DNA of 64,000 nucleotides from positions 1-64,000 of the forward strand of contig NZ_PIOB01000003.1 in assembly GCF_002909255.1 (NCBI RefSeq), written 5' to 3'. The notes beneath the pieces are model-generated. The model saw only the letters and a program-made list of their open reading frames with translations, had not been told where the DNA came from and ran no database searches. The number at the start of each line of letters is the position of its first letter. The stretch's first letter is position 1. This DNA is from Arenibacter hampyeongensis. GTDB lineage: Bacteria > Bacteroidota > Bacteroidia > Flavobacteriales > Flavobacteriaceae. The translations under genes and the position numbers were made by a program. Of the stretch, positions 38,994 to 55,243 are shown in pieces.

Positions 38994-40286
38994 ATGAAAA
39001 TAAAATCTTACACATCATGTAGGGCAATATTAGATCTCTTACTTATTCCATTTTTCATCCTAGTTTCACTTAATGTCCATTCCCAACAACTAAATGTGGG
39101 TGCGGCCCAACGAATTATTACCCCCAACCCACTTATTGCGGTTTCTGGTGGTGTAGGAACTCCCAAGCCCACTACTGAAAAGAAAGGAGAATTATATGTT
39201 AGGGCCATGGTGTTGGAAAAGGGCGGGGAAAAAATAGCCATTGTTAATGTCGATAATCTCGGATGGCCGGCATCTCTTGGCAATAGGGCCAGAAAACTGA
39301 TCAAGGACATTCCGTTCAATAATATATTAATAGGAGCCACACATACCCATAGCGCTCCTGATGCCTATGCTTTTCCGGACGAAAAAGGGAATTTTGCAGC
39401 CGATTTAAAATACCTTGATTGGTGCGTGATCCAAATTGCGGATGCCGTGAATGAAGCTTCTCAAAATTTAGAACCCGCCCAACTGAAAATCGCTGTAGGA
39501 GAGGCCAAAGGAAAAATAGCGTACAATTATTACGCCCCGGAATTGTACGATCCAAGATGTGGGGTAATTCAGGCTTTGGGCACCAAGGGAAAAAATAAAG
39601 ACCGGCCTATTGTTACTTTGCTAAACTATGCCATACATCCGGAGGTAATAGGCAGCGATCGTGGAATTTTGAGTCCTGATCTCATTGGACCACTATATGA
39701 TAGAATTGAGGCAAAGACCGGTGGGATGGCCCTTTTTATGAATGGTGCCCAAGGAGGAATGGTCACTGCAGACAATAGATTGGGAAACGGCCATGAAGCC
39801 TTTGATTGGGAAGAATGTAAGCGTATCGGGAATTTGTTGGCAGATGAAGCCCTAAAAATCATTTCAACTGCTGATATCCAAGAGAACCCTGAACTATATT
39901 GTACCTCCAAACAAACCGAATTCCCTATAGATTCGGAAATGATGCGATATATTATAAATAATTCCCCTTTAAATATGGGCGACTCGGACAGTGCCGTGAG
40001 TACAACCCTGAACCTTTTAAATATTGGATCGGCCCAAATACTGACCATTCCTGGAGAAGCCCTACCCAATATAGGCTATTATTTAAAAAGAAATATGCCC
40101 ACGGAACATCCCTTCCTTTTTGGATTGACCAATGATGCATTTGGGTATATATTGACAAAAGAAGATTTTAACAGTTTTAAAAGATACGATTACGTAAGTC
40201 GCACCAGCCTAGGGGAAAAAACAGGAGAAATCCTTATCAATGACCTATTGGCCCTAATCAAAAGCAGTCCTAAACCCAAGAAGTAA
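38994..40286 (+). CDS. Neutral/alkaline ceramidase-family secreted protein (copy 1)
   Basis: A 430-residue exported protein (signal peptide to about residue 30, VHS-QQ). It follows the N-terminal domain of the neutral/alkaline non-lysosomal ceramidase family: VGAAQRIITPNP, VSGGVGTPKPTTEKKGELYVRAMVLE (in parts), and the metal-site loop LIGATHTHSAPDAY (HTHS 117-120). At the place where true ceramidases, as I recall them, have GDVSPN with the nucleophile serine, this reads MNGAQGGMVTADN. It is also shorter than classical enzymes and lacks the C-terminal Ig-like domain. It may therefore hydrolyse another amide or ester. First gene of operon A, 30 bases before the next. Confidence 0.85.
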   Translation: MKIKSYTSCRAILDLLLIPFFILVSLNVHSQQLNVGAAQRIITPNPLIAVSGGVGTPKPTTEKKGELYVRAMVLEKGGEKIAIVNVDNLGWPASLGNRARKLIKDIPFNNILIGATHTHSAPDAYAFPDEKGNFAADLKYLDWCVIQIADAVNEASQNLEPAQLKIAVGEAKGKIAYNYYAPELYDPRCGVIQALGTKGKNKDRPIVTLLNYAIHPEVIGSDRGILSPDLIGPLYDRIEAKTGGMALFMNGAQGGMVTADNRLGNGHEAFDWEECKRIGNLLADEALKIISTADIQENPELYCTSKQTEFPIDSEMMRYIINNSPLNMGDSDSAVSTTLNLLNIGSAQILTIPGEALPNIGYYLKRNMPTEHPFLFGLTNDAFGYILTKEDFNSFKRYDYVSRTSLGEKTGEILINDLLALIKSSPKPKK

Positions 40287-40316
40287 AATAATTGCTAACA
40301 TTAACAAAATATCTTT

Positions 40317-41702
40317 ATGAAAAAAATGCTTTCCCTTTTCTTAGTGATGTCCCTATTATTTATATCCTCCTGCAAGGAGAGTCCAAAAAAGCTGGTGGAA
40401 AATGTTGGCCCAGTTGAAGCGACAGTAACACCTGAAACGGCACTCCGGAGCTATCTAAACAATGCCGACCATACCTATAAATGGGAACTAAAAGAGAATT
40501 ACCCCATAGGGGATGTAACTGCCTATGAGCTCTTATTGACCTCCCAGAAATGGAGAGAACATGTGTGGAGCCATGAACTAACGGTATTGGTACCCAAGGA
40601 AGTTGCCCATGACGGGGCACTATTATTGATTACTGGAGGAAGTATAAAAGAGGGAATCCCCAATTGGTCCTCCAATGAAGATGACAAAAAGTCGATTAGT
40701 TTTGCCCAGGTAGCGGAAAAAAACAAGGCCATAGTTGCTATTGTAAGACAGGTTCCCAACCAACCGCTTTACGACGGCTTAACGGAAGATGAACTTATTT
40801 CCTTCACCCTTCACAATTACAAAAATGATAAGGACCTAACATGGCCTCTACTTTTTCCAATGGTAAAAAGTGCCGTTAAGGCTATGGATGCAGTTCAGGA
40901 ATTCACAAGTAAAAATCTGCAAAAGGAAGTTACACGCTTTACGGTAACCGGAGCTTCCAAAAGAGGCTGGACCACCTGGCTAACCGGGGCCAACGATAAA
41001 AGGGTTGAAACAATTGCCCCAATGGTAATAGACGTTTTAAATATGCCTGTTAGTTTGGATTACCAAATTACAGCTTGGAACGAGTATAGCGTACAAATAA
41101 ATGATTATATAAAATTGGAAATCCCACAAACCGTAGGAACAGAGGACGGGAAGGCCATAACCCAAATGGTAGATCCCTATTCTTATAGGACCAATTTAAC
41201 CATGCCAAAATTAATATTTATCGGAACCAATGATGAGTATTGGCCTGTAGATGCCATCAAGAATTATATCAATGATATCCCCGGTGAAAACTATATTCAC
41301 TATGTACCCAATGCCGGACATGATTTGGGAGATGGGGAACAGGCTATGCGGGCCCTAAGTGCTTTTTGGGGGAAATCGCTGAACAAGACTCCCCAGACTT
41401 CCTTGGCCTACAACCTTACAACGGACAAAACCTCGGCAACCTTAACGGTCAAAACTACCTCGGATGAACTTCAAAATGCCTATATATGGTCGGCAGATTC
41501 GTCAGATAGGGACTTTAGGGACGAAAAATGGACCTCAAAAAAAATAGATTCAAAAGACCATGACCATATTTTTCAGCAGGTGAAATTTCCAAAAAGCGGC
41601 TTCAAGGCTTTTTATATTGATTTGGAATACGCCGACCCTAATGGTGGAAAATATACCAAGAGCTCTAGAATGTATGTAGCAGACGACGATGAAATCCTTT
41701 AG
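40317..41702 (+). CDS. PhoPQ-activated pathogenicity-related (PF10142-type) lipoprotein hydrolase
   Basis: A 461-residue lipoprotein (lipobox LFISSC, C19) of the PhoPQ_related alpha/beta hydrolase family. The triad is visible: S214 in TVTGASKRGWTTWLTG, D306 in IFIGTNDEYWPVDA and H335 in PNAGHDLGDGEQAM. The C-terminal about 100 residues form a beta-rich extension. The family is named from a PhoP/PhoQ-induced Salmonella gene, but its substrate is not settled. It is more likely an esterase or peptidase acting in the periplasm or at the surface. It overlaps the next gene by 14 bases, indicating tight coupling. Confidence 0.9.
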   Translation: MKKMLSLFLVMSLLFISSCKESPKKLVENVGPVEATVTPETALRSYLNNADHTYKWELKENYPIGDVTAYELLLTSQKWREHVWSHELTVLVPKEVAHDGALLLITGGSIKEGIPNWSSNEDDKKSISFAQVAEKNKAIVAIVRQVPNQPLYDGLTEDELISFTLHNYKNDKDLTWPLLFPMVKSAVKAMDAVQEFTSKNLQKEVTRFTVTGASKRGWTTWLTGANDKRVETIAPMVIDVLNMPVSLDYQITAWNEYSVQINDYIKLEIPQTVGTEDGKAITQMVDPYSYRTNLTMPKLIFIGTNDEYWPVDAIKNYINDIPGENYIHYVPNAGHDLGDGEQAMRALSAFWGKSLNKTPQTSLAYNLTTDKTSATLTVKTTSDELQNAYIWSADSSDRDFRDEKWTSKKIDSKDHDHIFQQVKFPKSGFKAFYIDLEYADPNGGKYTKSSRMYVADDDEIL

Positions 41703-42606: not shown

Positions 42607-42632
42607 ATCTATACGTTAAAAAAATAATTAAA

Positions 42633-43646
42633 ATGAAAAAGTCTTATCCATTCTCCTTATTCCTGAGCCTTAGTATGGCTTTCTTGCTAATTAGTTGTGG
42701 GGAAAAGAAAAAAAACAACGCGGTAACAGTGGAAGAACAGCCTGTTGAAGTAGCCAAAACCTGGGCGGAAAAACTGGGATGGCCTGCCGGAAAAAAGGTT
42801 ATTATGCTGCACGCCGATGACATTGGGATGTGCCCAGAGGCCAATATAGCTGCCAAAGATCAACTGAACAATGGACACATTCAGTCCGCTGCCGTAATGA
42901 TTCCATGTCCCAATGCCGAAGAATTCATCAATTGGGCGAAGGAAAACCCAGCTATGGATATCGGACTTCATCTTACACTGACCAGTGAATGGAAGAAGCA
43001 TCGTTGGGGCCCTATAACCCCGGACGCCGAAGTCCCTGGATTATTGGACCCTGAAGATAAACTGTGGCGAAGTGTCCCTGAGGTAGTACAACACGCCACT
43101 GCCGAGGAGGTTGAAAAGGAAATAAGGGCCCAAATTGAGCAATCCATAGCATGGGGCTATAGACCAGACCATATAGACACCCACATGGGCACGTTGTTCG
43201 GCGACCCTAGCTACGTAAAGGCATATATTAAAGTTGCCCAAGAATACGGTATTCCTGCAAACATTATTGATCTTTCCGTACCTTCGGTACTAGCCGAATT
43301 CAGGGCAAAAGGATATCCTATGGATGATTCGGTCGTTAAAATGTCCGAGGCCTACACATTGCCCAAATTGGATTATTTTACAAGTGCACCAAAGGCGGAT
43401 ACTTATGAAGAAAAGCTGGATAGCTTTAAAGAATTGATAAAATCCTTAAAACCAGGTCTAACAGAAATCATTTTTCACCCTTCCGTAGATACCGATAACT
43501 TAAGAAGTATTACTGGATCTTGGCAACAAAGGATTTGGGAATCACAGATTTTTTCCGATCCGGAACTAATCAATTTCTTCAAGGAAGAAGGTATTATTTT
43601 TACCAATTGGAAAGAAATCATGAGTCGGTTCAATGCTATGAACTAA
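42633..43646 (+). CDS. YdjC/ChbG-family carbohydrate deacetylase, lipoprotein
   Basis: A 337-residue lipoprotein (LLISC, C22) of the YdjC/ChbG family. Its members remove an acetyl group from N-acetylated oligosaccharides such as diacetylchitobiose. The metal and catalytic positions are visible: MLHADDIGMCPEANIAA (HADD 60-63), MDIGLHLTLTSEW and PDHIDTHMGTLFG. A late EIIFHPSVD completes the set. Unlike cytosolic E. coli ChbG, this copy is lipid-anchored, so it acts outside the cytoplasm. It ends operon A. In this context an N-acetylhexosamine-containing glycan is a natural substrate, by inference. Confidence 0.9.
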   Translation: MKKSYPFSLFLSLSMAFLLISCGEKKKNNAVTVEEQPVEVAKTWAEKLGWPAGKKVIMLHADDIGMCPEANIAAKDQLNNGHIQSAAVMIPCPNAEEFINWAKENPAMDIGLHLTLTSEWKKHRWGPITPDAEVPGLLDPEDKLWRSVPEVVQHATAEEVEKEIRAQIEQSIAWGYRPDHIDTHMGTLFGDPSYVKAYIKVAQEYGIPANIIDLSVPSVLAEFRAKGYPMDDSVVKMSEAYTLPKLDYFTSAPKADTYEEKLDSFKELIKSLKPGLTEIIFHPSVDTDNLRSITGSWQQRIWESQIFSDPELINFFKEEGIIFTNWKEIMSRFNAMN

Positions 43647-43715
43647 AAAGAATAACCTGTTAAATATTCATAAACCAAACATACCAAGGAATTATTGGGC
43701 AACTGCTTTCCATCA

Positions 43716-43759
43716 CCAATAAACTTGTTGGTTATTGGCCAAGAATTTGCCCAAATTCT
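43716..43759. terminator. Two hairpins between convergent genes
   Basis: CCAATAA (43716-43722) pairs with TTATTGG (43732-43738), and AGAATTTG (43742-43749) pairs with CAAATTCT (43752-43759). They lie between operon A and the convergent fadL-like gene. Neither has a long T run, so function as bidirectional terminators is tentative. Confidence 0.4.
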
Positions 43760-43773
43760 CCTAAACACGATTA

Positions 43774-45162
43774 CTACTGTCCAAAGGCAAAGCTAAACCC
43801 TACTATTACAAGGTCAGTGGTCATATCATATCCCACTTCGCTTCCAGGGATAGCCCCGGTAGGGTTGGTGTCCGCGTTCCATGGACCTCCCGAACTATCA
43901 GGCGTTGGATTTAACAACGGCCCAGTGGTTGAACCGCTGCTAGTTCCGTGGTGATAGGCAAAATCTAGGCTCAAACGCTCAGATACCTGGTAGCTGAGCC
44001 CAAACTGAAATGCATTTTTAATGACCGCGGTGGCTGGAGAGGACATGAAAACAAATTCTTCCTGAATAGGGTTTTCACTATAAGTATAGCCAATACGCAG
44101 GGGTAGCTTTTGGATACCCTTATATTGAAGTCCTGTAGAGATTACAGAAATATTTTGCCATCCAAACCCTTGTACGGCACCTGTGGGAAATCCTGCGAAA
44201 TCACCGCTTTCTGCCAATTGCCAGCCTGACTTTTTAAAGCCATCCGTGTTTTCATAGTCAATGTACCTGTAATCCAGGGCATAATCAAAATCTCCTTTAG
44301 AATAGCCCAGTCCAACCGAATATATTGCCGGATAGTCCATATTGAAATCTACGCTAGGGGCATCGCTTCCATCCAGATAGGTATTGTTAAAACTAAAATC
44401 ATTGAAAACCTGTTTGGATTTGTATGAAGCACCGAGCTTAAATCCACTTCCGGAATCATAAAAAAGGCCTAACTGTGCTCCAATACCAAAGGCGTCGGCT
44501 TTATCACTATTGGGATAACCAAGAGTCTGACTTGGTGCTGCCAATGGGTTGGGCCCAATTTCCAAGGTGGCATAATTAAAATTCGGTTGTATCCCCAAAG
44601 ATATCTTGTCGGTTATTTGATAGGTATATGCAAAACTTATCTGCAGTAGTGCATAATCCGATTCTATGCGTCCGAACCCCCCTGAGCTCTGTGGCATGGT
44701 TATAGGGTTGTCCTGACTTTCGGGAAAAGTTACACCAAAACCGGAAACGCCATAGGCAGAGATTCCATAGTTATGTTTGCTTTCTGCATTTCCCCAAGCA
44801 TAGGCCAGAGCCGGCAGTATAGAAATTCCGCGATCATCTCCCGTAGATCCGCTGAATGGCCCGTTTTGTGTTGGCACGGTGGAGGAAATGGAAGGATCCG
44901 AAAAAAACAAACCAGCATTAAAGGACAGTATCTGCCCATCAAATGTTGAGAGCGTAGCAGGATTCCACAATAAGGCTCCGGCTATATCCAACGGCTGTGC
45001 TGTAGCTGCCCCGCCCATGGAGGTATTGATACTCCCTACCCCTTGAAGTACATGGCCTACTTGTGCCTGTGTAGATGCTCCCCACAGCAGTAATATAATT
45101 GTAATAAAAAATCCCTTGGATATCCTAGATAAGCTAGAGATGTTACATGCTAATTTGTTCAT
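43774..45162 (-). CDS. OmpP1/FadL/TodX-family outer membrane transporter
   Basis: FadL-type barrels let hydrophobic molecules such as long-chain fatty acids cross the outer membrane. From the ATG at 45162 (462 residues) there is a clean signal peptide ending at STQAQ. The frame is open upstream to 45234, but that part covers the -7 element. Family features: GVGSINTSMGGAATAQPLDIAGALLWNPATLS (in parts: SINTSMGGAATAQPLDIAGA and LLWNPATLS), LGIQPNFNYATLEIGPNP, GLGYSKGDFDYALDYRYIDY and the terminal MTTDLVIVGFSFAFGQ. It faces operon A convergently and is divergent from operon B. Next to three ceramidase-family genes, uptake of a released fatty acid or lipid is a reasonable inference. Confidence 0.9.
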   Translation of the reverse strand: MNKLACNISSLSRISKGFFITIILLLWGASTQAQVGHVLQGVGSINTSMGGAATAQPLDIAGALLWNPATLSTFDGQILSFNAGLFFSDPSISSTVPTQNGPFSGSTGDDRGISILPALAYAWGNAESKHNYGISAYGVSGFGVTFPESQDNPITMPQSSGGFGRIESDYALLQISFAYTYQITDKISLGIQPNFNYATLEIGPNPLAAPSQTLGYPNSDKADAFGIGAQLGLFYDSGSGFKLGASYKSKQVFNDFSFNNTYLDGSDAPSVDFNMDYPAIYSVGLGYSKGDFDYALDYRYIDYENTDGFKKSGWQLAESGDFAGFPTGAVQGFGWQNISVISTGLQYKGIQKLPLRIGYTYSENPIQEEFVFMSSPATAVIKNAFQFGLSYQVSERLSLDFAYHHGTSSGSTTGPLLNPTPDSSGGPWNADTNPTGAIPGSEVGYDMTTDLVIVGFSFAFGQ

Positions 45163-45223
45163 TTTTTGCAATCGTTTATTAATTTCTGACCAGGCCAATT
45201 TCTGGAATCTGGCCAATCGGGGA

Positions 45224-45231
45224 CAAAAATA
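45224..45231 (-). promoter_or_regulatory. -7 element of the fadL-like gene
   Basis: TATTTTTG on the minus strand matches TAnnTTTG and lies 62 bases before the ATG at 45162, leaving a leader of about 55 bases. Confidence 0.5.
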
Positions 45232-45257
45232 CAAAATAAAATCTATAGGCTTAGTAG

Positions 45258-45274
45258 GTTAATTACTAATTAAC
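45258..45274. promoter_or_regulatory. 17-bp palindrome, candidate operator upstream of fadL-like gene
   Basis: GTTAATTA-C-TAATTAAC is a perfect palindrome centred about 40 bases upstream of the -7 element, close to the -48 position relative to the inferred start of transcription. It has the shape of a dimeric regulator site. No regulator gene lies beside it in this window. Confidence 0.45.
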
Positions 45275-45643
45275 GAAGAAGTACCCAATGACCTATTGCA
45301 TAATTAACCAGGTTACCATCTCAACCTTAGCCATGGCATGCAAGCAGTACCCGCCTAAAAATATGTAAGTCTGTCTTATATTGGGAGTTTAATCGCTGTT
45401 AGTTTGAAAATTGGAATATTTAAAAAGTCCTTTTCGATAATAAAACCAGAAAACCTTCCCGAACCAAAATTTCAAATATTCTAACACTTTCTAGAAATAA
45501 TTAAACATATTTTCACTTTTTTGGTAAAATATAATGCAAATCAAATAAAATTTAATAGGGAAAATACTTTTTAATAAGTTTTATTTGTGTGTAACCCCTT
45601 ATTTTGGGAAAATGATAATAATTTTCAATAATATCTGTTTATC

Positions 45644-46534
45644 ATGAATTCAACCTCTGGAATAATCCTAGCCATTTCTTTGATAATTATTATGTTCGGG
45701 ATGGGCCTGTCCTTGACCATGTTCGATTTTAAGAGAGTGGTTAGCTATCCTAAGGCTATGATCATAGGTCTCCTATGTCAGATGTTGTTACTGCCGTTAA
45801 TTGGCTATTTTATTGCCATTTCCCTTAGCTTGTCCCCCACCACAGCCATAGGCATTATGTTATTGGCGGCCTGTCCTGGTGGACCAACATCCAACATGCT
45901 ATCTTATTTGGCCAAAGGGGATTTGGCCTTATCCGTTTCATTGACTGCCGTGTCCAGTATTTTGTCCATTTTAACCATTCCATTAATCGTGCAATTTGCC
46001 TTGGAAGAATTTTCCAATAAAAGCATGGCCGTAACTGTTGATGCCCTAACCATGGTAAAACAGTTATTGGTAATAGTGATCATACCCGTTGGAATTGGGA
46101 TGCTTATAAAAAGTAAATTCGAAGCATTTGCCAACAAAATGGAGAAACCTGTTAAAATAGCCTCTGCCATTATTTTTATTTTAGTAATCATTGGCGTGAC
46201 AATCAGCGTCAAGGATGTTTTTATGAGCTATTTAAGTGAGGCTGGGCTACCGGCTATACTACTAAATGTAAGTACCATGACCATAGGGTTTCTAATGGCC
46301 GTCCTGTTTAAACTAACAAGACCACAAGCCATCAGTATTTCCATTGAAACAGGAATCCAAAATGGGACTTTAGCAATTACCCTTGCAACAATTGCCTTGA
46401 ACAATGCCGAATACTCCATTGTGCCTGCCATTTATGGGCTGTTAATGTTCATCACGGCCACCGTAATTATTTTTATCAGAAAACCACTTGGTGTAAAGGA
46501 TGAATTAAGTCTGGAAAAAGAATCTGCCAAATAA
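45644..46534 (+). CDS. Bile acid:Na+ symporter (BASS/SBF) family transporter
   Basis: A 296-residue inner-membrane protein with nine to ten helices. The family motif AACPGGPTSNMLSYLAKGD at about 73-91 and the AVSSILSILTIPL crossover region match BASS transporters, which use the Na+ gradient to import organic anions such as bile acids, pyruvate or pantoate. It opens operon B, 15 bases before the MFS gene. Na+ coupling fits an organism carrying Na+-NQR. The substrate is unknown; an acidic product of the operon's hydrolases is plausible. Confidence 0.92.
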   Translation: MNSTSGIILAISLIIIMFGMGLSLTMFDFKRVVSYPKAMIIGLLCQMLLLPLIGYFIAISLSLSPTTAIGIMLLAACPGGPTSNMLSYLAKGDLALSVSLTAVSSILSILTIPLIVQFALEEFSNKSMAVTVDALTMVKQLLVIVIIPVGIGMLIKSKFEAFANKMEKPVKIASAIIFILVIIGVTISVKDVFMSYLSEAGLPAILLNVSTMTIGFLMAVLFKLTRPQAISISIETGIQNGTLAITLATIALNNAEYSIVPAIYGLLMFITATVIIFIRKPLGVKDELSLEKESAK

Positions 46535-46549: not shown

Positions 46550-47830
46550 ATGAAAAAAAATCAAATCATTGTAGTCCTTATTTTATTCATCTTTTTTGTC
46601 ATTTCCTTCCTTACCAATATTTTAGGGCCTTTAATCCCCGATATCATTACTGATTTCAAGGTCAGCTTAACCATGGCCGCCTTATTGCCATTTGCCTTTT
46701 TTGTTGCCTACGGCGTGTTTTCCATTCCCGCAGGAGTAGCAGTGGAAAGCTACGGGGAAAAGCAGGTAATCTTGGCTGCATTTTTGGTTTCCTTTTTTGG
46801 TGCTATTCTATTTTCCTTGTTTCCCAATTTCCCTATAGCCTTGGTATCCCTATTTTTAATAGGCTCGGGAATGGCCATGTTACAAGTAGCCATTAATCCC
46901 TTGCTTCGGGTTGCAGGGGGGGAAGAACATTTCGCCTTTAATTCTGTAATGGGACAGCTCGCATTTGGACTTGCTTCCTTTATCAGTCCCTTCCTTTTCT
47001 CTTATCTTGTTCTCAACCTGGAAAACTACTCGGGTCCGGGCAATTCCAATTTTGTTATCGAAACATTTCACAAAATTGTACCAGAAGATTTACCATGGGT
47101 TTCCCTCTACTGGATTTTTGGGATTATTTCACTGCTTATGGTCATATTCATATATCCCATAAAATTACCCAAGGTAGAAAGGAATGAAGACGAAAGGGCC
47201 GGTACTTGGGCCACTAATAAGCTATTATTGAAAAACAAAAAAGTAATCCTATTCTTTATGGGCTTGTTCGCATATGTTGGAACCGAACAGGGTGTCGCCA
47301 ATTGGATGTCCCAGTTTCTGTCCGAATATCATGGGTTGGACCCAAGGGTGGAAGGAGCCAGCGCCATTTCATTGTTTTGGGGCCTATTAACTGTAGGCTG
47401 TATTCTTGGGCTGCTATTATTGAAATTTATGGATAGCAAATTGGTTCTGAAACTATTTGCAGGAGCAGCCATCTTAAGTTTGACAGCCGCACTTTTTGGC
47501 TCTGCGCAAATTGCCGTCGTGGCATTCCCTTTGGTCGGATTCTTTGCTTCGGTCATGTGGTCCATTATATTCTCCTTGGCCTTGAACTCGGTAAAAGACA
47601 ACCATGGTGCCCTCTCCGGTATACTTTGTTCAGGAATAGTGGGCGGGGCCGTTGTTCCTCTAATTGTAGGGGCAATAGGTGATCTGATTGGGCTTAAAGG
47701 AGGTATGATCTTTTTATACCTGACTTTAGGCTTTATTTTTAGTATAGGGTTTTGGGCCAAACCTCTGGTAAATAATAAAACCATAAGTATTAAAGAATTT
47801 TTTGAAACTGGAAAAACATCGAAACCTTAA
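46550..47830 (+). CDS. MFS transporter, FHS (fucose permease)-like
   Basis: A 426-residue, twelve-helix major facilitator protein. The segment GSGMAMLQVAINPLLRVAGG resembles the NP-containing helix of the fucose/glucose:H+ symporter (FHS) branch. The N-terminal FLTNILGPLIPDIITDF and the central hydrophilic loop with a PKVERNEDERAG stretch agree. It probably imports a monosaccharide released by the operon's glycosidases. It starts 15 bases after the BASS gene and ends 12 bases before the esterase gene. Confidence 0.88.
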   Translation: MKKNQIIVVLILFIFFVISFLTNILGPLIPDIITDFKVSLTMAALLPFAFFVAYGVFSIPAGVAVESYGEKQVILAAFLVSFFGAILFSLFPNFPIALVSLFLIGSGMAMLQVAINPLLRVAGGEEHFAFNSVMGQLAFGLASFISPFLFSYLVLNLENYSGPGNSNFVIETFHKIVPEDLPWVSLYWIFGIISLLMVIFIYPIKLPKVERNEDERAGTWATNKLLLKNKKVILFFMGLFAYVGTEQGVANWMSQFLSEYHGLDPRVEGASAISLFWGLLTVGCILGLLLLKFMDSKLVLKLFAGAAILSLTAALFGSAQIAVVAFPLVGFFASVMWSIIFSLALNSVKDNHGALSGILCSGIVGGAVVPLIVGAIGDLIGLKGGMIFLYLTLGFIFSIGFWAKPLVNNKTISIKEFFETGKTSKP

Positions 47831-47842: not shown

Positions 47843-48799
47843 ATGGGCATTAGAATAGTACTCATTTTATCGATATTCTTATTAATTGTTGGATGTAAAT
47901 CAAAACAATATGATATCTCCCAACCGCCCAAAGGCTACTCTAATAATACCACCCTAAAGATAGCCTATGCAACTGGGGCCCTAAAAATAATAGAAACAGA
48001 CTTCCCCATACCAGAAGATATTGAGGAATACAAAGATGTAGTTTATAAAACTGTGGACACCACACAACTCAAATTGGACATTTACCACTCCAAGGGACTT
48101 GATAAGGACGCCCCGTTAATTATTTTTATACACGGCGGAGCATGGAAAAAAGGTAACAAACACGATTATTTGGCGTATTTGATCAGTTATGCAAAAAAAG
48201 GATATATAACGGCTACCATACAATACAGATTAACCAATGTTGCCAAATATCCTGCACAGCTAAATGATGTTGAAGATGCCGTAAAATGGTTAAAAGTAAA
48301 CGCGGACCAGTACCATATAAATCCTAAAAAAGTAGCCATGGTTGGTGGTTCAGCCGGTGGGCATTTGGCCATGATGAACGCCTATTCCAACACTCCCCAA
48401 GATGTAGATGAGAACGGAAAAACTGCCGCTGTACAAGCCATCGTGAATTTTTATGGCCCATCCAATCTAACGGATGAAACTGCCATTAAAGCAGCCTCGG
48501 TGCAATATTTAATAGGTAAATCCTATGACGAGGCCCCTGAACTGTACAAAAATGCCTCTCCCCTATTTCTAATTTCAAAAAATGTCCCCCCAACCATTAC
48601 ATTCCAAGGTACCCTGGACGAATTGGTTCCCTATGAACAATCGGATATATTGCATGCCACCCTACAGGAAGCTGGTGCCACCTCCTATTACCATAAACTA
48701 AAAGGCTGGCCACATACTATGGATGCTTCTGTAAAAGTGAATGCTTATTGCCAATACCATATGGATCGGTTTTTTGAAAAGTACATTCCCATAAATTAG
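47843..48799 (+). CDS. Lipoprotein alpha/beta hydrolase (HGGxW carboxylesterase)
   Basis: A 318-residue lipoprotein (LLIVGC, C18) of the BD-FAE/hormone-sensitive-lipase-like esterases. HGGAW at 97-101 is the oxyanion loop, S170 lies in MVGGSAGGHLAM, the acid is in FQGTLDELVPYE and the histidine in GWPHTMD. Such enzymes remove acyl or acetyl groups from carbohydrates. It sits in operon B between transporter and GH92 genes, so deacylation of the same glycan is the likely task. Confidence 0.9.
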   Translation: MGIRIVLILSIFLLIVGCKSKQYDISQPPKGYSNNTTLKIAYATGALKIIETDFPIPEDIEEYKDVVYKTVDTTQLKLDIYHSKGLDKDAPLIIFIHGGAWKKGNKHDYLAYLISYAKKGYITATIQYRLTNVAKYPAQLNDVEDAVKWLKVNADQYHINPKKVAMVGGSAGGHLAMMNAYSNTPQDVDENGKTAAVQAIVNFYGPSNLTDETAIKAASVQYLIGKSYDEAPELYKNASPLFLISKNVPPTITFQGTLDELVPYEQSDILHATLQEAGATSYYHKLKGWPHTMDASVKVNAYCQYHMDRFFEKYIPIN

Positions 48800-48814: not shown

Positions 48815-51181
48815 ATGAAATGGCTAAAAAAAACAGCAAAAATCACAGCCTATTCCCTTGGAATAGGCATGGGCATTGTGCTCCTTGCTATTTTTCTTGC
48901 TAGTTGGAAATATAAAAGTACTGTAAATGCCACCCCAAATAACCAAACAGAAAACTTACGTCCAGGAGAATTAGGTAAATATGTAAATACTTTTATTGGC
49001 ACTGGAGGCTTCCCCAGTTGGGTCTGTGGATTCAACTTTCCTGGTGCAACCGTGCCTTTCGGCATGGTCCGATTGAGTCCTGAAACCATGTCAATCCTTA
49101 ACGACATCAAAAGTTTTAGTACCTCGGGCTATTATTACGGAGACAGTAAAATATTAGGCTTCAGCCATACAAGATTGGCCGGTACCGGGGCTACGGATGG
49201 AGGTCATTTTCTATTTACCCCTACAACAACGCCAAGGAACGATATAAACTTTAAGCTAGATTATGCACATAAGTTTTCCCATAAGGACGAAGTCGCCTTT
49301 CCTGGATATTACCGGGTAAAATTACCGAAAGAGAAAATAGAGGCGGAATTATCGGCTACGGTGAGGACTGGCCTGCATAGATATAATTTTCCTGCTAGTG
49401 GGGAAAAGAATATCCTAATTCATATAACCAATACCACAGGTAATCATAAAGCACAGGACGGGTCAATAAAAATACTTCAGAAAAGCAATGAAATTGAAGG
49501 TTCCGTTAAGACCTTTGGTAGTTTTGCCGGCCGATTTGGAGGTATACAGGTATACTTTGTGGCAAGGTTTAACCAGCCCTTTTCCGATCATGTCATTTGG
49601 GATGGAAAAATATTGGACGAAACTACTACTAGCAAGAAAAGCGATAGCCTAAAAGTGATTCTCGGCTTTAAACAAGAAAGCGTAACGGCCAAAGTTGGAA
49701 TTTCCCATGTTAGCATTGACAACGCTCGATTGAATTTGGAGACTGAAGTAGGATTATTGGATTTTGATGAAATATTGGATCGTGCCAAATCCGGTTGGGA
49801 GGAAAAATTAGGGCTGATTAAAATTGAGGGGGGCTCACTGGAGGAAAAAAAAGTCTTTTACAGTGCTTTATATCGAAGTTTTCAAATGCCAACTACCTTC
49901 AATGATGTAAATGGCCAATATATTGGTTTCGACAAGAAAGTCCACCTGGCAACCGACTTTACCTACTATACAGATCTATCTTTATGGGACACTTTCCGAA
50001 CTGTACATCCACTGTTTAACCTAATTGCCCAGGATGAACAAAGGGACATGTTGGTCTCTTTGGTAGAAATGGCCAAACAAGGGGGCAGTCTGCCGCGTTG
50101 GCCATCAGGGTATGGTTATAGCAATTCAATGTTGGGCTCCCCGGCGGATATGGTCATCGCAGAATCTTACATAAAAGGTATCCGCAATTTTGATGTGGAC
50201 CTTGCCTATAAAAAAATGAAACAAGTTGCCTTGGAGCCCATTCCCAAGGACAGTTCCGCAACCGGCCGTGAAGAAATAACCGGATATATTACCTACGGCT
50301 ATTGTCCGACCGAATATGGGGATGAAGCTGTTAGTAAGACCTTGGAGTATGCTTGGGCCGATCATTCCATAAGCCTTTTGGCGAAGGAACTAAATTTTCC
50401 CGAAGACCAAATATTGTTTGAAAAACATTCCAAAAATTACAAGAATGTCTGGAATGCGGAAACACAATATTTTCAACCAAGACATAAGGATGGGCATTTT
50501 GTAGAAAAATTTAAACCTTTGCAACTTACTTATACGGATTGGGACAAGGAATATACCAAGGATTATACGGAAGGGAGTGCCTTGCAATGGAGATGGGCAG
50601 TACCTTTTGATACGGATGGACTGGTATCCCTTTTTAAAGATAAAGACTATTTTATCAGTGAACTTAACAATTTCTTTGCCAAGGCAGATCCAAAAAAAGC
50701 TACTTGGTCCCCAGGCTCCTACTACTGGCACGGAAATGAACCGGATATCCATGCCGCTTATTTATTCAATGCGGCTGGGAGACCAGACCTGACCCAAAAA
50801 TGGGTACGTTGGATTTTGGATAACAAATATGACAATACCTACGTGGGTATAGACGGAAATGATGATGCAGGTACATTGTCCGCCTGGTATATTTTTAGCT
50901 CACTTGGGTTTTATCCCATTGCAGGTACGGATATATATCAACTGGGAGCTCCATTATTTAAAAACGCAGTTCTTAAAATGGGTAAAAACCTATTGACCAT
51001 AAATACGGAAAACTATAATCCAAAACATATCTATGTAAAACAAGTGCTGCTCAACAATATACCCTTGGAGCACACATGGATAAACCATAAAGAAATAGCC
51101 AATGGTGGCAATTTAACCTTCATCATGGCCAATCTTTCGCAATATTCAATTAACGAACAATCATCTAAATCGATCTTATGA
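48815..51181 (+). CDS. GH92 family alpha-mannosidase, membrane-anchored
   Basis: A 788-residue GH92 enzyme. Characterised family members are Ca2+-dependent exo-alpha-mannosidases acting on N-glycans or yeast mannan. It starts with a membrane anchor (about 8-28) in place of a cleavable signal. Family segments are PGATVPFGMVRLSPET, ILGFSHTRLAGTGATDGG, SLWDTFRTVHPLF, GYSNSMLGSPADMVIAE, WHGNEPDIHAAYLFN with the likely general acid E642, and GIDGNDDAGTLSAWYIFSS with the likely base in D683/D684. Full-length and intact. Its stop overlaps the next start (ATGA). Confidence 0.96.
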   Translation: MKWLKKTAKITAYSLGIGMGIVLLAIFLASWKYKSTVNATPNNQTENLRPGELGKYVNTFIGTGGFPSWVCGFNFPGATVPFGMVRLSPETMSILNDIKSFSTSGYYYGDSKILGFSHTRLAGTGATDGGHFLFTPTTTPRNDINFKLDYAHKFSHKDEVAFPGYYRVKLPKEKIEAELSATVRTGLHRYNFPASGEKNILIHITNTTGNHKAQDGSIKILQKSNEIEGSVKTFGSFAGRFGGIQVYFVARFNQPFSDHVIWDGKILDETTTSKKSDSLKVILGFKQESVTAKVGISHVSIDNARLNLETEVGLLDFDEILDRAKSGWEEKLGLIKIEGGSLEEKKVFYSALYRSFQMPTTFNDVNGQYIGFDKKVHLATDFTYYTDLSLWDTFRTVHPLFNLIAQDEQRDMLVSLVEMAKQGGSLPRWPSGYGYSNSMLGSPADMVIAESYIKGIRNFDVDLAYKKMKQVALEPIPKDSSATGREEITGYITYGYCPTEYGDEAVSKTLEYAWADHSISLLAKELNFPEDQILFEKHSKNYKNVWNAETQYFQPRHKDGHFVEKFKPLQLTYTDWDKEYTKDYTEGSALQWRWAVPFDTDGLVSLFKDKDYFISELNNFFAKADPKKATWSPGSYYWHGNEPDIHAAYLFNAAGRPDLTQKWVRWILDNKYDNTYVGIDGNDDAGTLSAWYIFSSLGFYPIAGTDIYQLGAPLFKNAVLKMGKNLLTINTENYNPKHIYVKQVLLNNIPLEHTWINHKEIANGGNLTFIMANLSQYSINEQSSKSIL

Positions 51182-52257
51182 GACTTTTGTTTTTATTATG
51201 TACCTTGTTAGTAGCATCATGTAAAGGAAAAATGGATAAATTACCTGAAGTAGTTCCATTAGAACATCCTGCCATTTTAGAACAGGAATTTATATACGAA
51301 ATTGAAAATGCACTTACCCCAGAATGTCATGCCTCCACAGTAGAAGTAAGTAATGGAACGGTTATCTCCTCTTGGTTTGGTGGAACGGAAGAAAAGAACG
51401 ACGATGTGGGAATTTGGGTATCCCGAAAAACTGCAGGCTCATGGTCTACCCCTATCGAAGTTGTAAATGGCGTACAGGAAGATGGTACCAGATACCCTTG
51501 TTGGAATCCAGTACTGTTTAAACCAAAAGACCAACCGTTAATTCTATTTTACAAAGTAGGGCCCAGTCCTACTGAGTGGTGGGGACTATATATGACCTCT
51601 AAGGATGATGGAAAAACCTGGTCCAGCCCTGTAATGCTTCCAGACGGCATACTAGGACCTATAAAAAATCAACCCATTCAATTGGCAAGTGGGGAAATAC
51701 TTTCTCCCTCCAGCACGGAAGACGACACCGACGGATGGAAAATACATCTCGAACTTAGTTCTGATAACGGAAAGACCTGGTCCAAGACACAAGCCCTTAA
51801 TGATGGCAAGGAATTTGGCGCCATTCAACCTGTGGTACTAAATTATGGAAATGGAAAAATACAGCTATTGAGTAGAACAGAAAATGAGGTTGTCACAGAA
51901 AATTGGTCTACGGATTACGGCAGTACTTGGAGCAAAATGACAGCCACTTCATTACCCAATCCCAACTCTGGAATTGATGGAGTAAGCTTAAAAGATGGAC
52001 GACAATTATTGGTGTACAATCCCACCGGTAAAAATTGGGGCGATCGGGTACCTTTAAGTTTGGCCCTGTCCACTGACGGTAAAAATTGGAAACGCGTGTT
52101 GGACTTGGAACCATTAAGGGAAAACACCGATAAGGACGGGGAAGAATATTCATACCCCACCATGATACAGGCCCCTGACGGAAAGGTGCATATTGTTTAT
52201 ACCTGGAACAGAAAAACGGTAAAATATGTCGTTATAGATCCCGAAAAACTTAATTAA
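51178..52257 (+). CDS. Sialidase-fold (BNR repeat) lipoprotein
   Basis: A 359-residue lipoprotein (LLVASC, C15) with a six-bladed sialidase-type propeller. Asp-box repeats are visible: SKDDGKTWSSP, SSDNGKTWSKT, STDYGSTWSKM and a degenerate STDGKNWKRV. The VSNGTVISSWFGGTEEKND opening and GPIKNQPIQLASGEILSPSS match the BNR_2 type used in many Bacteroidota. It may be a true exo-sialidase or act on another sugar; the arginine triad cannot be confirmed by eye. It overlaps GH92 by 4 bases and precedes ceramidase-family copy 2 by 5. Confidence 0.88.
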   Translation: MRLLFLLCTLLVASCKGKMDKLPEVVPLEHPAILEQEFIYEIENALTPECHASTVEVSNGTVISSWFGGTEEKNDDVGIWVSRKTAGSWSTPIEVVNGVQEDGTRYPCWNPVLFKPKDQPLILFYKVGPSPTEWWGLYMTSKDDGKTWSSPVMLPDGILGPIKNQPIQLASGEILSPSSTEDDTDGWKIHLELSSDNGKTWSKTQALNDGKEFGAIQPVVLNYGNGKIQLLSRTENEVVTENWSTDYGSTWSKMTATSLPNPNSGIDGVSLKDGRQLLVYNPTGKNWGDRVPLSLALSTDGKNWKRVLDLEPLRENTDKDGEEYSYPTMIQAPDGKVHIVYTWNRKTVKYVVIDPEKLN

Positions 52258-52262
52258 TAACA

Positions 52263-53666
52263 ATGATGTTAAAATGGTTAAAGATCTTGGCTAAAATCTT
52301 TGGGGCACTTATCCTGCTCCTGATTCTTCTGTTCTTTTTTGCTACCAGTACTATAGATACCTCTCCATATTTTGAAACCCAATATTACAGGAATACTATT
52401 CAAAATATAGAGGAAGCCGTTAAAAATAAAACGGAAGCCGAGGGATCTTTACTTGCCGGATTTGCAAGAACAAATATCACCCCTAAAATTGTAAGTGGAA
52501 CTCCAGACCCCAATAAGGGGGAATTCAATAGCATTAAAATGGCGGGTTATGGCAGTGGCAAAATTGCAACGGGTGTGCACGATTCCATATTTGCCAAAGC
52601 AATCGCCATAGATGTCAACAATGAGTCCATTATACTGATCAACGCGGATCTGGTAGCCATACCTGAAGATGTTGTCTTAAAGGTAACCGAAATCTTAAAA
52701 GGAAAAATATCCAGGAAACAGCTTTTTTTCGGAGCCACCCATACCCATTCCAGTATTGGAAATTGCATGCCGGGCTATGTAGGCAAAAGTTTTGGGGGAG
52801 AGTATCAACCGGAAGTAGTAGCATGGCTTGCCCAAAAATTTTCCGACCTTATATTAAAGGCTTTGGCAGACAAACAACCGGCCCAGTTTTCATCAGGCTA
52901 CATAAAGGTTCCCCATCTGGTACGAAATAGGATAATTGGAGAATCTGGGCGCCTCAATGATAAACTAGATCTATTATCCTTTATTCAGGAAAACGGTAGA
53001 AGAGCCAGCATTGGCGTTTTTTCTGCCCATGCCACCGTAATAGGTACCGATAATGAACAATACACGGGAGATTATCCAGGATACTTTCAACGTCATATGG
53101 AAGAAAATGGTGTGGACCTCGCCATGTTCTTCGCTGGAACAGTGGGTAGTCATTCCAATAAAGGTATAGGCGAGAAGTTTGTCAAAGCGAAATACATTGG
53201 GGAAACCCTTGCCGATTCGGCCCAAGTGGCCCTGAACAAAATGGAACATTCCGGAAATATGGAATTAACGGCAATATCCTCAGAGATTGAAATTCCAAAG
53301 TTACAGTTCCTATATATTTCTGACCGTTTACGACTTTCGCCCTACTTAGGAAGGAAGCTGATGCCAGAAATGAACCCGGTTCATGTACAGGGCCTGAAAT
53401 TAAACAAGCTCGTTTGGCTTGCACTGCCTTACGAACTTAGCGGTGAATATGGTTTGGATTTAAAAAACGCCTTGGAATTGCAGGGCTATAATTCCGTGCT
53501 CAGTAGTTTTAATGGGCAATATTTGGGTTATATCGTACCGCAAAAATATTACTATTATGATACTTACGAAGCGCGGTTAATGGGGTGGTATGGCCCCAGT
53601 ATGGGCGATTACCTGATGGAACTCAATTTTAAAATGGCCAATGAACTAACTCATACCAAGCTATAA
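52263..53666 (+). CDS. Neutral/alkaline ceramidase-family protein (copy 2), membrane-anchored
   Basis: A 467-residue protein with an N-terminal anchor helix (about 7-29) instead of a cleaved signal. The ceramidase-family segments are AGFARTNITPKIVSG, GYGSGKIATGVHDSIFAKAI and FFGATHTHSSIGN (H160/H162). The serine region reads MFFAGTVGSHSNKG, not GDVSPN, so the catalytic detail differs from classical ceramidase. The C-terminal NGQYLGYIVPQKYYYYDTYE is shared in type with copy 3 (SNDEIGYIIPKSEW). It has a double ATG start; 52266 is equally possible. It is 11 bases ahead of copy 3. Confidence 0.85.
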   Translation: MMLKWLKILAKIFGALILLLILLFFFATSTIDTSPYFETQYYRNTIQNIEEAVKNKTEAEGSLLAGFARTNITPKIVSGTPDPNKGEFNSIKMAGYGSGKIATGVHDSIFAKAIAIDVNNESIILINADLVAIPEDVVLKVTEILKGKISRKQLFFGATHTHSSIGNCMPGYVGKSFGGEYQPEVVAWLAQKFSDLILKALADKQPAQFSSGYIKVPHLVRNRIIGESGRLNDKLDLLSFIQENGRRASIGVFSAHATVIGTDNEQYTGDYPGYFQRHMEENGVDLAMFFAGTVGSHSNKGIGEKFVKAKYIGETLADSAQVALNKMEHSGNMELTAISSEIEIPKLQFLYISDRLRLSPYLGRKLMPEMNPVHVQGLKLNKLVWLALPYELSGEYGLDLKNALELQGYNSVLSSFNGQYLGYIVPQKYYYYDTYEARLMGWYGPSMGDYLMELNFKMANELTHTKL

Positions 53667-53677
53667 AACCAAATACA

Positions 53678-55243
53678 ATGAAAACTTTAAAAAAGGGATT
53701 AAAAATAATCGGGATATTGGTCCTTTTACTGCTGTTGGTAGGAGCATCCATAGTGATGTACAATTGGCGCGATCGCCATCCAGATTACACCATAGATCTA
53801 AAAATTGAAAACAAAACTCCTCAGCCCATTAAGGCCGGATTTGCCAAAAAGCCTATAACACCTACCATAGTGGACACTTGGAACGACGCCAATGGAAACA
53901 ATAAATACAGTAAAGATGAAGGGGATACGTATAATGACAATAACAACAATGGAAAATTTGATGCGTATTGGATAGCCGGAATGAGCAATGCCAAGCCGGC
54001 ACAGGGCGTCCATGATGATGTGTGGTCCCGTGTCATGGTAATGGACGATGGCAAAAGCAGGATCGCTATGATTTCTATGGATGCCATTGGTTTTTTACAT
54101 GGCGATGTGATCGATATCAGAAAACGTATACCTGCGGAATTAGGAATAGATTACACCTTAATATCCTCTACCCATACCCATGAAAGCAATGACCTTGTAG
54201 GCATATGGGGAGAAAATATATTCAATTCGGGAGTAAATCCTGAAATGATGGAATATGTAAAATCCCAGACCGTTGAAGCCATTACGGAAGCCGTTCAAAA
54301 TTTACGCCCGGCCAAACTGGTGTTCGCCGAAGATCTATCCGGTAACGATGGCAAACTCATTAAAGACACCCGAAAACCGATCGTAAAAGCCACTGGAATA
54401 CATTTAATGCAGGTCTTGGATGCCGAAAACGATACTACCTTGGGGACCATCATCAATTGGGCCAATCACCCGGAAACGCTATGGTCCCAAAATCTATTGA
54501 TCAGTTCCGATTTTCCGCATTTTATACGTGAAGCAATGGAAAACGGCGTATATAATGGAAAAGAATTGGTACATGAAGGACTTGGCGGTGTCGCCATTTA
54601 TTTTTCAGGAGCCATTGGTGGCCTAATGGCCCCCCACCCTTCCCTTGGTATTCCAGACCCCTTTACCGGAGAAGAATATTTTGAACCCACTTTTGAAAAA
54701 ACCAAAGCGCTTGGCGATCAAATTGCACTGATGTCCTTAGCTGCCTTAAAACAAAAAGGGGATACTCTGGCCAATTCCAATATTTCGATAAGGGCAAAAA
54801 CCATAATGGCTCCTTTGGACAATACTACCTTTAAAATTGCCAGTGGTATTGGCTTGATTAAAATGGGTATGCCAGAATATTTTAAATCGAGAACGGAAGT
54901 GGGCGCCATTCGGATAGGCCCGGCTTTCTTTTTAAGCATCCCTGGAGAAATATATCCCGAAATTGTTTATGGCGGAATTGAAGCACCTGAAGGGCGAGAA
55001 TTTGACATCCAGCCCATGGAGATACCTCCACTTCAGGAATTGATTACCGACAAGTACAAATTCTACTTGGGACTTTCCAATGATGAAATAGGGTACATAA
55101 TACCCAAAAGTGAATGGGATACGGGAAAACCTTATCTCTATAATGATGAAGGTGATACCTATGGGGAAGAAAATTCTTTGGGACCAGAAACGGGTCCCAT
55201 AATTTACAATGCTCTAACGGAAGTTATACAAGACTTAAAATAA
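53678..55243 (+). CDS. Neutral/alkaline ceramidase-family protein (copy 3) with Ca-loop insert
   Basis: A 521-residue membrane-anchored relative of copies 1 and 2 (anchor about 9-28). After the AGFAKKPITPTIVDTW strand it carries an insert at residues 70-95 with two calcium-loop-like runs, DANGNNKYSKDEG and NDNNNNGKFD, similar to EF-hand or dockerin/thrombospondin-3 loops and absent from the other copies. The metal loop is SSTHTHESNDLVG (166-169), with Glu replacing Ser, and the nucleophile region reads YFSGAIGGLMAPHP. The C-terminus has SNDEIGYIIPKSEW and a second acidic NDEGDTYGEEN. Last gene of operon B. Confidence 0.85.
   Translation: MKTLKKGLKIIGILVLLLLLVGASIVMYNWRDRHPDYTIDLKIENKTPQPIKAGFAKKPITPTIVDTWNDANGNNKYSKDEGDTYNDNNNNGKFDAYWIAGMSNAKPAQGVHDDVWSRVMVMDDGKSRIAMISMDAIGFLHGDVIDIRKRIPAELGIDYTLISSTHTHESNDLVGIWGENIFNSGVNPEMMEYVKSQTVEAITEAVQNLRPAKLVFAEDLSGNDGKLIKDTRKPIVKATGIHLMQVLDAENDTTLGTIINWANHPETLWSQNLLISSDFPHFIREAMENGVYNGKELVHEGLGGVAIYFSGAIGGLMAPHPSLGIPDPFTGEEYFEPTFEKTKALGDQIALMSLAALKQKGDTLANSNISIRAKTIMAPLDNTTFKIASGIGLIKMGMPEYFKSRTEVGAIRIGPAFFLSIPGEIYPEIVYGGIEAPEGREFDIQPMEIPPLQELITDKYKFYLGLSNDEIGYIIPKSEWDTGKPYLYNDEGDTYGEENSLGPETGPIIYNALTEVIQDLK

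What the first reader, a model, noticed from the sequence alone, without database searches (positions are those of the whole stretch)
38994..55243. Catabolic island with three ceramidase-family proteins, GH92, sialidase, deacetylase, esterases, FadL-type porin and BASS/FHS transporters
Seen: two tight plus-strand operons and a FadL-type gene between them. Operon B gaps are 15, 12, 15, -4, 5 and 11 bases. All hydrolases are lipid- or membrane-anchored or exported. Known: GH92 trims alpha-mannose, sialidases remove sialic acid, ChbG removes acetyl from N-acetylhexosamines, neutral ceramidase cleaves N-acyl sphingosine, FadL passes hydrophobic molecules. Inference: the set could dismantle a glycolipid or lipid-linked glycoconjugate and import both sugar and lipid parts, an unusual combination for a polysaccharide utilisation locus. 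Neither operon contains its own SusCD.
Basis: partly seen in the sequence, partly recalled or inferred. Interest (0 to 1): 0.7.

Follow-up and report, generated by a model that had tools for sequence, protein, structure and literature searches.

The report
Uncharacterised Bacteroidota nutrient-uptake locus, ceramidase-like enzymes
Marine Arenibacter and related bacteria share a long, well-conserved gene block that probably imports and dismantles an unknown acylated, phosphate-bearing sugar compound; three of its enzymes look like ceramidases but probably do not cut ceramide.

Summary
The genes and spacings reported are real, but the reading needs redrawing. The two operons are the right half of a larger locus that includes a SusC/SusD/PKD-lipoprotein trio diverging 288 bp from operon A. 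A SusD orthologue (60-93% identity) lies within 20 kb of ceramidase-like gene 3 (CER3) in 29 of 31 genomes tested. The shared core is CER1-PhoPQ-related-AXE-YdjC-BASS-BNR-CER2-CER3, with AraC-regulator and DHDPS-aldolase families in 15 of 15 regions. The ceramidase-like proteins share the neutral-ceramidase fold and the residues aligned with its zinc site; no C-terminal domain was detected, and in two of the three the residue aligned with the catalytic serine is Val or Met. The 'sialidase' lacks the RIP motif. Aldolase, fucose isomerase and ribulokinase links hint at a Kdo-like acidic sugar passing through D-arabinose; this is inference. Best reading: an apparently undescribed SusCD-type locus for an acylated, phosphorylated acidic glycoconjugate. 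Substrate unproven.

The parts
13438..14313 (+). glycerophosphodiester phosphodiesterase-like (gdpd); family near the locus in 12 of 15 regions
   Evidence: Pfam GDPD 101.6 bits; synteny
15044..16819 (-). GH31 alpha-glycosidase-like
   Evidence: Pfam; PDB best hit Lmo2446; in 7 of 15 regions
16816..18270 (-). PHP/CehA-McbA-like metallohydrolase with predicted membrane segments (by eye); adjacent to CER3 in 6 of 6 Bacteroidales loci where both were called
   Evidence: below the CehA/McbA cut-off (36.2 against 80 bits); 12 of 15 regions
18352..19275 (-). DHDPS-family pyruvate-dependent aldolase, subfamily unassigned (below dapA and nanA cut-offs)
   Evidence: family present in 15 of 15 regions
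19566..20432 (+). AraC-type regulator
   Evidence: HTH_18 82.3 bits, weak Cupin_2 below cut-off; 15 of 15 regions
29939..31210 (-). polytopic membrane protein u30, unknown
   Evidence: 13 of 15 regions
31225..32346 (-). metallophosphatase
   Evidence: Metallophos 55.8 bits; relatives of 61-67% identity near CER3 in L047, L049, L051, L053, L076
32623..34281 (-). SusD-like lipoprotein (SUSD)
   Evidence: PF12771 263 bits; orthologue within 20 kb of CER3 in 29 of 31 genomes
34299..37700 (-). SusC/RagA TonB-dependent transporter (SUSC)
   Evidence: TIGR04056 625 bits, above cut-off
37749..38705 (-). PKD-domain lipoprotein, first gene of the SusCD operon, divergent from CER1
   Evidence: adjacent to CER1 in 10 of 10 loci where both are seen
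38706..38993 (.). 288-bp AT-rich divergent intergenic region between the PKD-SusCD operon and operon A
38994..40286 (+). CER1, short neutral-ceramidase-fold protein, signal peptide (by eye)
40317..41702 (+). PhoPQ_related alpha/beta hydrolase lipoprotein (PQR)
   Evidence: PF10142 354.7 bits
41689..42606 (+). AXE1-like alpha/beta hydrolase, membrane-anchored by eye (AXE)
42633..43646 (+). YdjC-like carbohydrate deacetylase lipoprotein (YDJ)
   Evidence: below the carbohydrate deacetylase and chitin disaccharide deacetylase cut-offs
43774..45234 (-). FadL/OmpP1-type porin, accessory, found at this place only in some Arenibacter
   Evidence: 2 of 21 loci
45644..46534 (+). BASS-type sodium symporter (BASS)
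   Evidence: SBF 143 bits; below TIGR00841 cut-off
46550..47830 (+). FHS-type MFS sugar permease, accessory
   Evidence: 7 of 23 loci, all Arenibacter
47843..48799 (+). BD-FAE esterase lipoprotein, accessory
   Evidence: 14 of 23 loci
48815..51181 (+). GH92 alpha-mannosidase-type protein, accessory
   Evidence: TIGR01180 560 bits; 8 of 23 loci
51178..52257 (+). BNR_2 sialidase-fold lipoprotein without RIP motif (BNR)
   Evidence: next to CER2 in 33 of 33
52263..53666 (+). CER2, membrane-anchored neutral-ceramidase-fold protein
53678..55243 (+). CER3, membrane-anchored neutral-ceramidase-fold protein

Best explanation
A PUL-type locus that imports and dismantles an acylated, phosphate-bearing glycoconjugate containing an acidic sugar. 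Proposed order of steps: SusC/SusD/PKD bind the ligand at the surface and import it. Periplasmic enzymes then strip it: CER1-3 as metal-dependent amide or ester hydrolases that remove acyl groups, PQR/AXE (and BD-FAE where present) as esterases, YdjC as N-deacetylase, metallophosphatase, GDPD-like and PHP enzymes on phosphate, and BNR, GH31 (and GH92 in some Arenibacter) as glycosidases. Na+ symporters (BASS; in non-Arenibacter genomes also SSS) bring the acidic sugar in, and a DHDPS-type aldolase splits it to pyruvate plus a smaller sugar. An AraC-type protein regulates. Shown: gene content, synteny, fold, conserved zinc-site residues. Inferred: localisation, each reaction, the substrate class. 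Leading but unproven candidate for the acidic sugar: Kdo or a close relative, because fucose isomerase plus ribulokinase (a D-arabinose route) lie beside or inside the locus in several relatives.
For: Core adjacency: CER1-PQR 15 of 15, PQR-AXE 16 of 16, AXE-YDJ 22 of 22, BNR-CER2 33 of 33, CER2-CER3 34 of 34 loci in which both genes are visible (48 loci examined). SusD orthologue within 20 kb of CER3 in 29 of 31 genomes; the 31 were chosen from the 48 loci. DHDPS and AraC families in 15 of 15 regions, SSS in 12, the three without it being the Arenibacter regions. A Prolixibacteraceae MAG keeps SSS, DHDPS, AraC, CER2, YdjC, GH31, AXE, PQR, CER1, PKD, SusC, SusD and CER3 in a different order. 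In G363, another family, CER1 and PQR follow a SusC/SusD pair. Profile of 12 CERs finds neutral ceramidases 2zws (1.8e-28) and 4wgk (2.2e-25). AlphaFold2 models match only neutral ceramidases in PDB at E<=0.001. Residues aligned with the zinc site conserved in 16 of 16 CER1, 36-37 of 37 CER2 and 44-45 of 45 CER3. FucI lies within 20 kb of CER3 in 6 of the 23 genomes that have FucI (33 genomes searched). Three kinases beside those FucI genes were scanned and all pass the ribulokinase cut-off NF003154 and not the fuculokinase one.
Against: No substrate, expression or activity data. CER3 relatives (46-48% identity) occur away from any such locus in G844, G363, G253 and G743, so CER3 does not need this pathway. 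BNR, BASS, PHP and u30 were not found in the Prolixibacteraceae region. SSS was not found in the window or the two other Arenibacter regions. In 17 of the 23 FucI genomes FucI is elsewhere, and in the window's own genome it is with a BNR paralogue but no aldolase in the 20 kb read. One FucI genome, G169, has it beside an aldolase of the rhamnulose-1-phosphate type, as in an ordinary deoxysugar operon. The kinases near CER3 pass only one of the two ribulokinase models.
Confidence: 0.55

Rival explanations
1. One reading: the set dismantles a eukaryotic glycosphingolipid or ganglioside-like lipid, with sialidase, mannosidase, deacetylase and true ceramidases, and FadL imports the lipid.
For: CERs belong to the neutral ceramidase fold family; BNR is distantly related to GH33; YdjC and GDPD-like proteins are present.
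Against: GH92, FHS and FadL not part of the conserved set. No C-terminal ceramidase domain detected and neutral ceramidase equivalog score 18.8 (CER2) and 27.1 (CER3) against a cut-off of 1200, no hit for CER1. Serine-equivalent is Val in 16 of 16 CER1 and Met in 45 of 45 CER3. BNR lacks RIP. DHDPS protein below both nanA cut-offs.
Confidence: 0.12
2. Bacterial LPS or lipooligosaccharide (or Kdo-bearing algal glycan) utilisation: CERs remove N-acyl chains, esterases O-acyl chains, phosphatases phosphates, BNR releases Kdo, the aldolase gives pyruvate and D-arabinose, FucI and ribulokinase feed D-ribulose-5-phosphate to the pentose phosphate pathway; heptose enzymes in Bacteroidales variants.
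For: Aldolase family in 15 of 15 regions; FucI-ribulokinase pairs; GmhA-like and RfaE-like/HAD genes in the CER3 gene cluster of Bacteroidales MAGs; GH33 is listed as including Kdo hydrolase (PMC9120202 passage).
Against: No direct test; the GmhA-like gene is the only copy found in 6 of 11 such MAGs searched, so it may be the biosynthetic gene; FucI can also act on L-fucose (recalled); BNR may act on another sugar.
Confidence: 0.25
3. CERs are not amidases but lactonases or esterases for small acylated or lactonised sugar acids, and the locus feeds on an algal uronate or ulosonate polysaccharide.
For: Zinc-site residues kept, serine-equivalent lost in CER1 and CER3; acidic-sugar-type transporters and aldolase; genera found are Arenibacter, Maribacter, Zobellia and allies, which I recall as marine and often alga-associated.
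Against: Little to separate it from the best explanation; no polysaccharide lyase family among the window proteins scanned.
Confidence: 0.2

Closest known systems
Bacteroidota polysaccharide utilisation loci (SusC/SusD systems)
   Same: SusC and SusD pair, surface lipoprotein, exported hydrolases, Na+ and MFS permeases, linked regulator
   Different: dominated by deacylase-, esterase- and phosphatase-type proteins rather than glycosidases; AraC regulator; pyruvate-dependent aldolase; triple ceramidase-fold set; no substrate assigned
Neutral ceramidase (P. aeruginosa 2zws, human 4wgk; PF04734)
   Same: fold and residues aligned with the zinc site
   Different: shorter proteins of 430-521 aa, no C-terminal domain detected, serine-equivalent absent in CER1 and CER3, scores far below the NCBIfam equivalog cut-off
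Sialic acid utilisation loci, e.g. the Tenacibaculum maritimum PUL (PMC5561996, passages only)
   Same: SusCD, sialidase-fold enzyme, DHDPS-superfamily aldolase, sodium symporter
   Different: BNR lacks RIP; aldolase below nanA cut-offs; no N-acylglucosamine 2-epimerase among the locus proteins scanned (the whole genome was not searched for one); CER set present

Membership tests
SusCD-type utilisation locus (PUL) | adjacent SusC and SusD genes | tested here: met
   34299-37700 TIGR04056 above cut-off and 32623-34281 PF12771
SusCD-type utilisation locus (PUL) | linked exported carbohydrate-active enzymes | tested here: met
   GH31, GH92, BNR_2, YdjC, but most conserved hydrolases are not glycosidases
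SusCD-type utilisation locus (PUL) | induction by and binding of a defined glycan | not testable with these tools
   no expression data
Neutral ceramidase | fold and zinc ligands (ligand identities recalled) | tested here: met
   models made for CER2 and CER3 only
Neutral ceramidase | catalytic serine (recalled S274 in P. aeruginosa; position 250 of the solved chain counted by eye) | tested here: not met
   Val in 16 of 16 CER1, Met in 45 of 45 CER3; CER2 has Ser 29 and Thr 8 of 37 but the local alignment is uncertain
Neutral ceramidase | C-terminal domain and full-length equivalog score | tested here: not met
   only the N-terminal Pfam model hit; 18.8 and 27.1 bits against 1200, no hit for CER1
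GH33 sialidase | RIP motif with first arginine of the triad (recalled) | tested here: not met
   PECHAST or a close variant at that place in eight of nine rows of alignment A8 and no RIP in the ninth; placement by eye
GH33 sialidase | Asp-box propeller similarity | tested here: met
   best 6.5e-11, best-scoring stretch profile positions 140-301
N-acetylneuraminate lyase (NanA) | curated NanA score | tested here: not met
   107.1 against 281 and 84.5 against 382 bits
Kdo catabolic aldolase | cleavage of Kdo to D-arabinose and pyruvate | not testable with these tools
   context only

The most novel reading that the evidence does not exclude
This is a dedicated utilisation system for Kdo-containing lipo-glycoconjugates (LPS/LOS inner core with lipid A, or Kdo-bearing algal glycans). 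A new clade of ceramidase-fold zinc enzymes N-deacylates the lipid part, a sialidase-fold enzyme releases Kdo, and a DHDPS-type aldolase, fucose isomerase and ribulokinase route it through D-arabinose; the Bacteroidales form adds a heptose branch.
Probability: 0.2. Interest if true: 0.8.

Novelty: new variant of a known kind. Interest (0 to 1): 0.5.

Why it matters
If right, it defines a SusCD locus type built around deacylation and dephosphorylation, gives a genomic context for short ceramidase-fold proteins that are easily annotated as ceramidases, and offers a testable route for how marine Bacteroidota recycle acylated acidic glycoconjugates. It also warns against reading 'ceramidase' and 'sialidase' annotations as sphingolipid or sialic acid use.

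Tried and rejected
Sulfoquinovose route: GH31 at 15044-16819 has as best PDB hits Lmo2446/cycloalternan-forming enzyme and alpha-glucosidases or xylosidases, and no chain named sulfoquinovosidase among the 29 listed. Sialic acid route: aldolase below NanA cut-offs, BNR without RIP. L-fucose as the main product: the kinases next to FucI that I scanned in L024, L048, L101, L097 and L104 score 563-727 bits on ribulokinase NF003154 (cut-off 428) and 40-56 on fuculokinase (cut-off 470.9); on the second ribulokinase model, TIGR01234, only L097 passes (606 against 583). I looked at the FucI surroundings in 10 of the 23 FucI genomes; of these only G169 (L102) has FucI with a rhamnulose-1-phosphate-aldolase-type gene, and L-fucose is weakened, not excluded. 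C9 ceramidase paralogues of the own genome: neighbours are sulfatase, DUF7133/HEAT/cytochrome c, Gfo/Idh, esterase and mannitol dehydrogenase, a different context that did not help. PhoPQ-related protein against PDB gave only weak FimH matches judged to be chance. A promoter pattern scan of the window gave 2 matches against 0.69 expected, neither in the divergent region. Literature: ten searches listed no paper that, from titles and abstract starts, describes such a locus; only passages of PMC5561996, PMC9120202 and PMC4016182 were read; the library holds open-licence papers only.
Full report
Observation. Families are as named, with the caveat that CER1 (25.2 bits) and CER3 (31.9) fall below the Ceramidase_alk gathering score of 32.1 on their own. 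Profile comparison shows CER1 and CER3 to be homologous over nearly their whole length (hhalign E 9.7e-28) and CER1 and CER2 to be related over 256 columns (3.8e-13). The own genome has five Ceramidase_alk hits: these three and two on contig C9.

Where it is. A scan of genome contigs with CER3 gave 48 loci. By my sorting they are 14 Arenibacter, 22 other Flavobacteriaceae or Flavobacteriaceae-like, and 12 Bacteroidales or other. The closest are ten Arenibacter at 91-97% identity (four more at 80-85%), so the window is very probably Arenibacter. In evenly drawn samples, CER2 was found in 6 of 149 family genomes, CER1 in 3 of 395 phylum genomes and CER3 in 6 of 395 class genomes, own genome included and each at its own E-value limit. 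It is therefore uncommon.

Conserved set. In the 48 loci, gene neighbours hold whenever both genes are in view: CER1-PQR 15 of 15, PQR-AXE 16 of 16, AXE-YdjC 22 of 22, BNR-CER2 33 of 33, CER2-CER3 34 of 34, PKD-CER1 10 of 10; YdjC-BASS 19 of 21, the two exceptions holding FadL in between. Many loci end at contig edges or at the 10-kb flank, so absence is often not visible. Some members are truly missing in places, for example CER2 in L054. FadL is present in 2 of 21 loci with both YdjC and BASS, FHS in 7 of 23 and GH92 in 8 of 23 loci with both BASS and BNR; FHS and FadL were seen only in Arenibacter, GH92 also in L067 and L076.

SusCD. PKD, SusC and SusD diverge from CER1 across 288 bp. With SusD as query in 31 genomes chosen from the 48 loci, 30 have a match. 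It is missing in the Urechidicola MAG (L075). In Kriegella aquimaris it sits 358 kb away together with CER1, PKD, SusC, DHDPS, PHP and GH31 (L099), so the locus is split there rather than lost.

Wider locus. Clustering of 15 regions (several do not reach the whole locus) finds DHDPS and AraC in 15, u30, SusC, SusD, PQR and YdjC in 13, SSS, PHP, PKD, AXE, BNR and GDPD-like in 12, Gfo/Idh and the unassigned family F3 in 10, a purple-acid-phosphatase-like family F4 in 8, and GH31 in 7. The three regions without SSS are the Arenibacter ones, the window included. In two of those three, a second SusCD plus an ASPIC/FG-GAP gene (20558-28939 in the window) lies between AraC and the core. In the own genome a second DHDPS and a Gfo/Idh relative lie on contig C1. 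The Prolixibacteraceae MAG keeps most of the set in a different order, without BNR, BASS, PHP, u30, GH92, FHS or FadL in view, which argues for functional linkage beyond shared descent of a block. In G363, of another family, CER1 (67%) and PQR follow a SusC/SusD pair.

CER proteins. The joint profile (12 sequences) hits only the two solved neutral ceramidases significantly. The AlphaFold2 models (mean pLDDT 80.5 and 80.3) match the same two enzymes and nothing else at E<=0.001 (TM-score by query 0.64-0.67 for CER2, 0.59-0.60 for CER3). CER1 was not modelled. The residues aligned with the zinc site are conserved almost without exception. The residue aligned with the catalytic serine (recalled as S274 of the Pseudomonas enzyme; position counted by eye) is Val in all 16 CER1 and Met in all 45 CER3 examined. 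In CER2 it is Ser or Thr, but the model is poor there (pLDDT below 50 at 295-304). No C-terminal domain was recognised. I therefore infer metal-dependent hydrolases of changed specificity. Against a strict tie to this pathway, CER3 relatives of 46-48% identity lie away from any such locus in four other genomes, one of which (G363) has the CER1 locus elsewhere.

BNR and the aldolase. The BNR profile reaches GH33 sialidases at best E 6.5e-11, mostly over the Asp-box blades, and lacks the RIP motif. The aldolase is below the dapA, nanA, HpaI and KDG aldolase cut-offs; its best PDB hit is 4xky, named dihydrodipicolinate synthase.

D-arabinose hint. FucI gives one match in each of 23 of 33 genomes searched. 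In 6 of those 23 it lies within 20 kb of CER3 (L048, L050, L054, L076, G165, Sediminicola). Taking 40 kb of about 5 Mb per genome, about 0.2 would be expected by chance if genomes were independent, which they are not fully. Four of the six carry a kinase beside FucI (L024, L048, L076, L101). Of these I scanned three, and all three pass the NF003154 ribulokinase cut-off but not that of TIGR01234. In the window's own genome FucI and a ribulokinase lie on contig C2 next to a BNR paralogue of 55% identity and an SSS symporter. FucI as a D-arabinose isomerase and Kdo aldolase giving D-arabinose plus pyruvate are recalled facts. From these I infer a Kdo-like sugar, with the caveat that L-fucose, or direct release of D-arabinose by BNR, is not excluded.

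Heptose hint. In ten Bacteroidales loci displayed, a GmhA-like gene is in 7 and an RfaE-kinase/HAD fusion in 6, in line with CER3 (in L074 with PHP, CER3 being cut by the fetched stretch), often with PHP; several contigs end there. The abstract start listed (PMC11056994) states that GmhA makes heptose-7-phosphate from sedoheptulose-7-phosphate. In 6 of 11 such MAGs searched it is the only GmhA-like gene found (MAGs may be incomplete), so it may serve LPS synthesis rather than catabolism. The Prolixibacteraceae MAG has its GmhA-like gene elsewhere, and the own genome gave no match at that limit.

Verdict. The substrate remains inference.

Noticed in passing
L013:16634-18838 and F3 relatives: A family of about 735 aa with no Pfam or NCBIfam hit for the members scanned, found in 10 of 15 regions near the locus; by eye it looks like a propeller followed by an alpha/alpha barrel.
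   Followed up: partly
L097:7471-18409 (own genome contig C2): Ribulokinase, fucose isomerase, a BNR paralogue (55%), two weaker BNR-like proteins and an SSS symporter form a separate cluster, repeated in another Arenibacter (L103).
   Followed up: partly
L069:39-11563: Bacteroidales gene run PQR, GSU2086-family, RfaE-kinase/HAD, ROK, GmhA-like, phosphoesterase-propeller, PHP, CER3 with short or overlapping spacers.
   Followed up: partly
L115-L118 (G844, G363, G253, G743): CER3 relatives at 46-48% identity away from any such locus.
   Followed up: partly
L027:14038-15861 and L002:940-2340 (own genome contig C9): Two further ceramidase-fold paralogues flank a DUF7133/HEAT/cytochrome c protein, with a sulfatase nearby.
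   Followed up: partly
window 20558-28939: Second SusC/SusD pair with a 1135-aa FG-GAP/ASPIC protein inside the locus, seen in two of three Arenibacter regions and in none of the twelve others clustered.
   Followed up: no
window 55439-56818: DEDD exonuclease fused to a UvrC/Cho-like GIY-YIG region directly after the island, seen at that place only in Arenibacter loci.
   Followed up: no
window 29939-31210: Polytopic membrane protein u30 without family assignment, linked to the locus in 13 of 15 regions.
   Followed up: no
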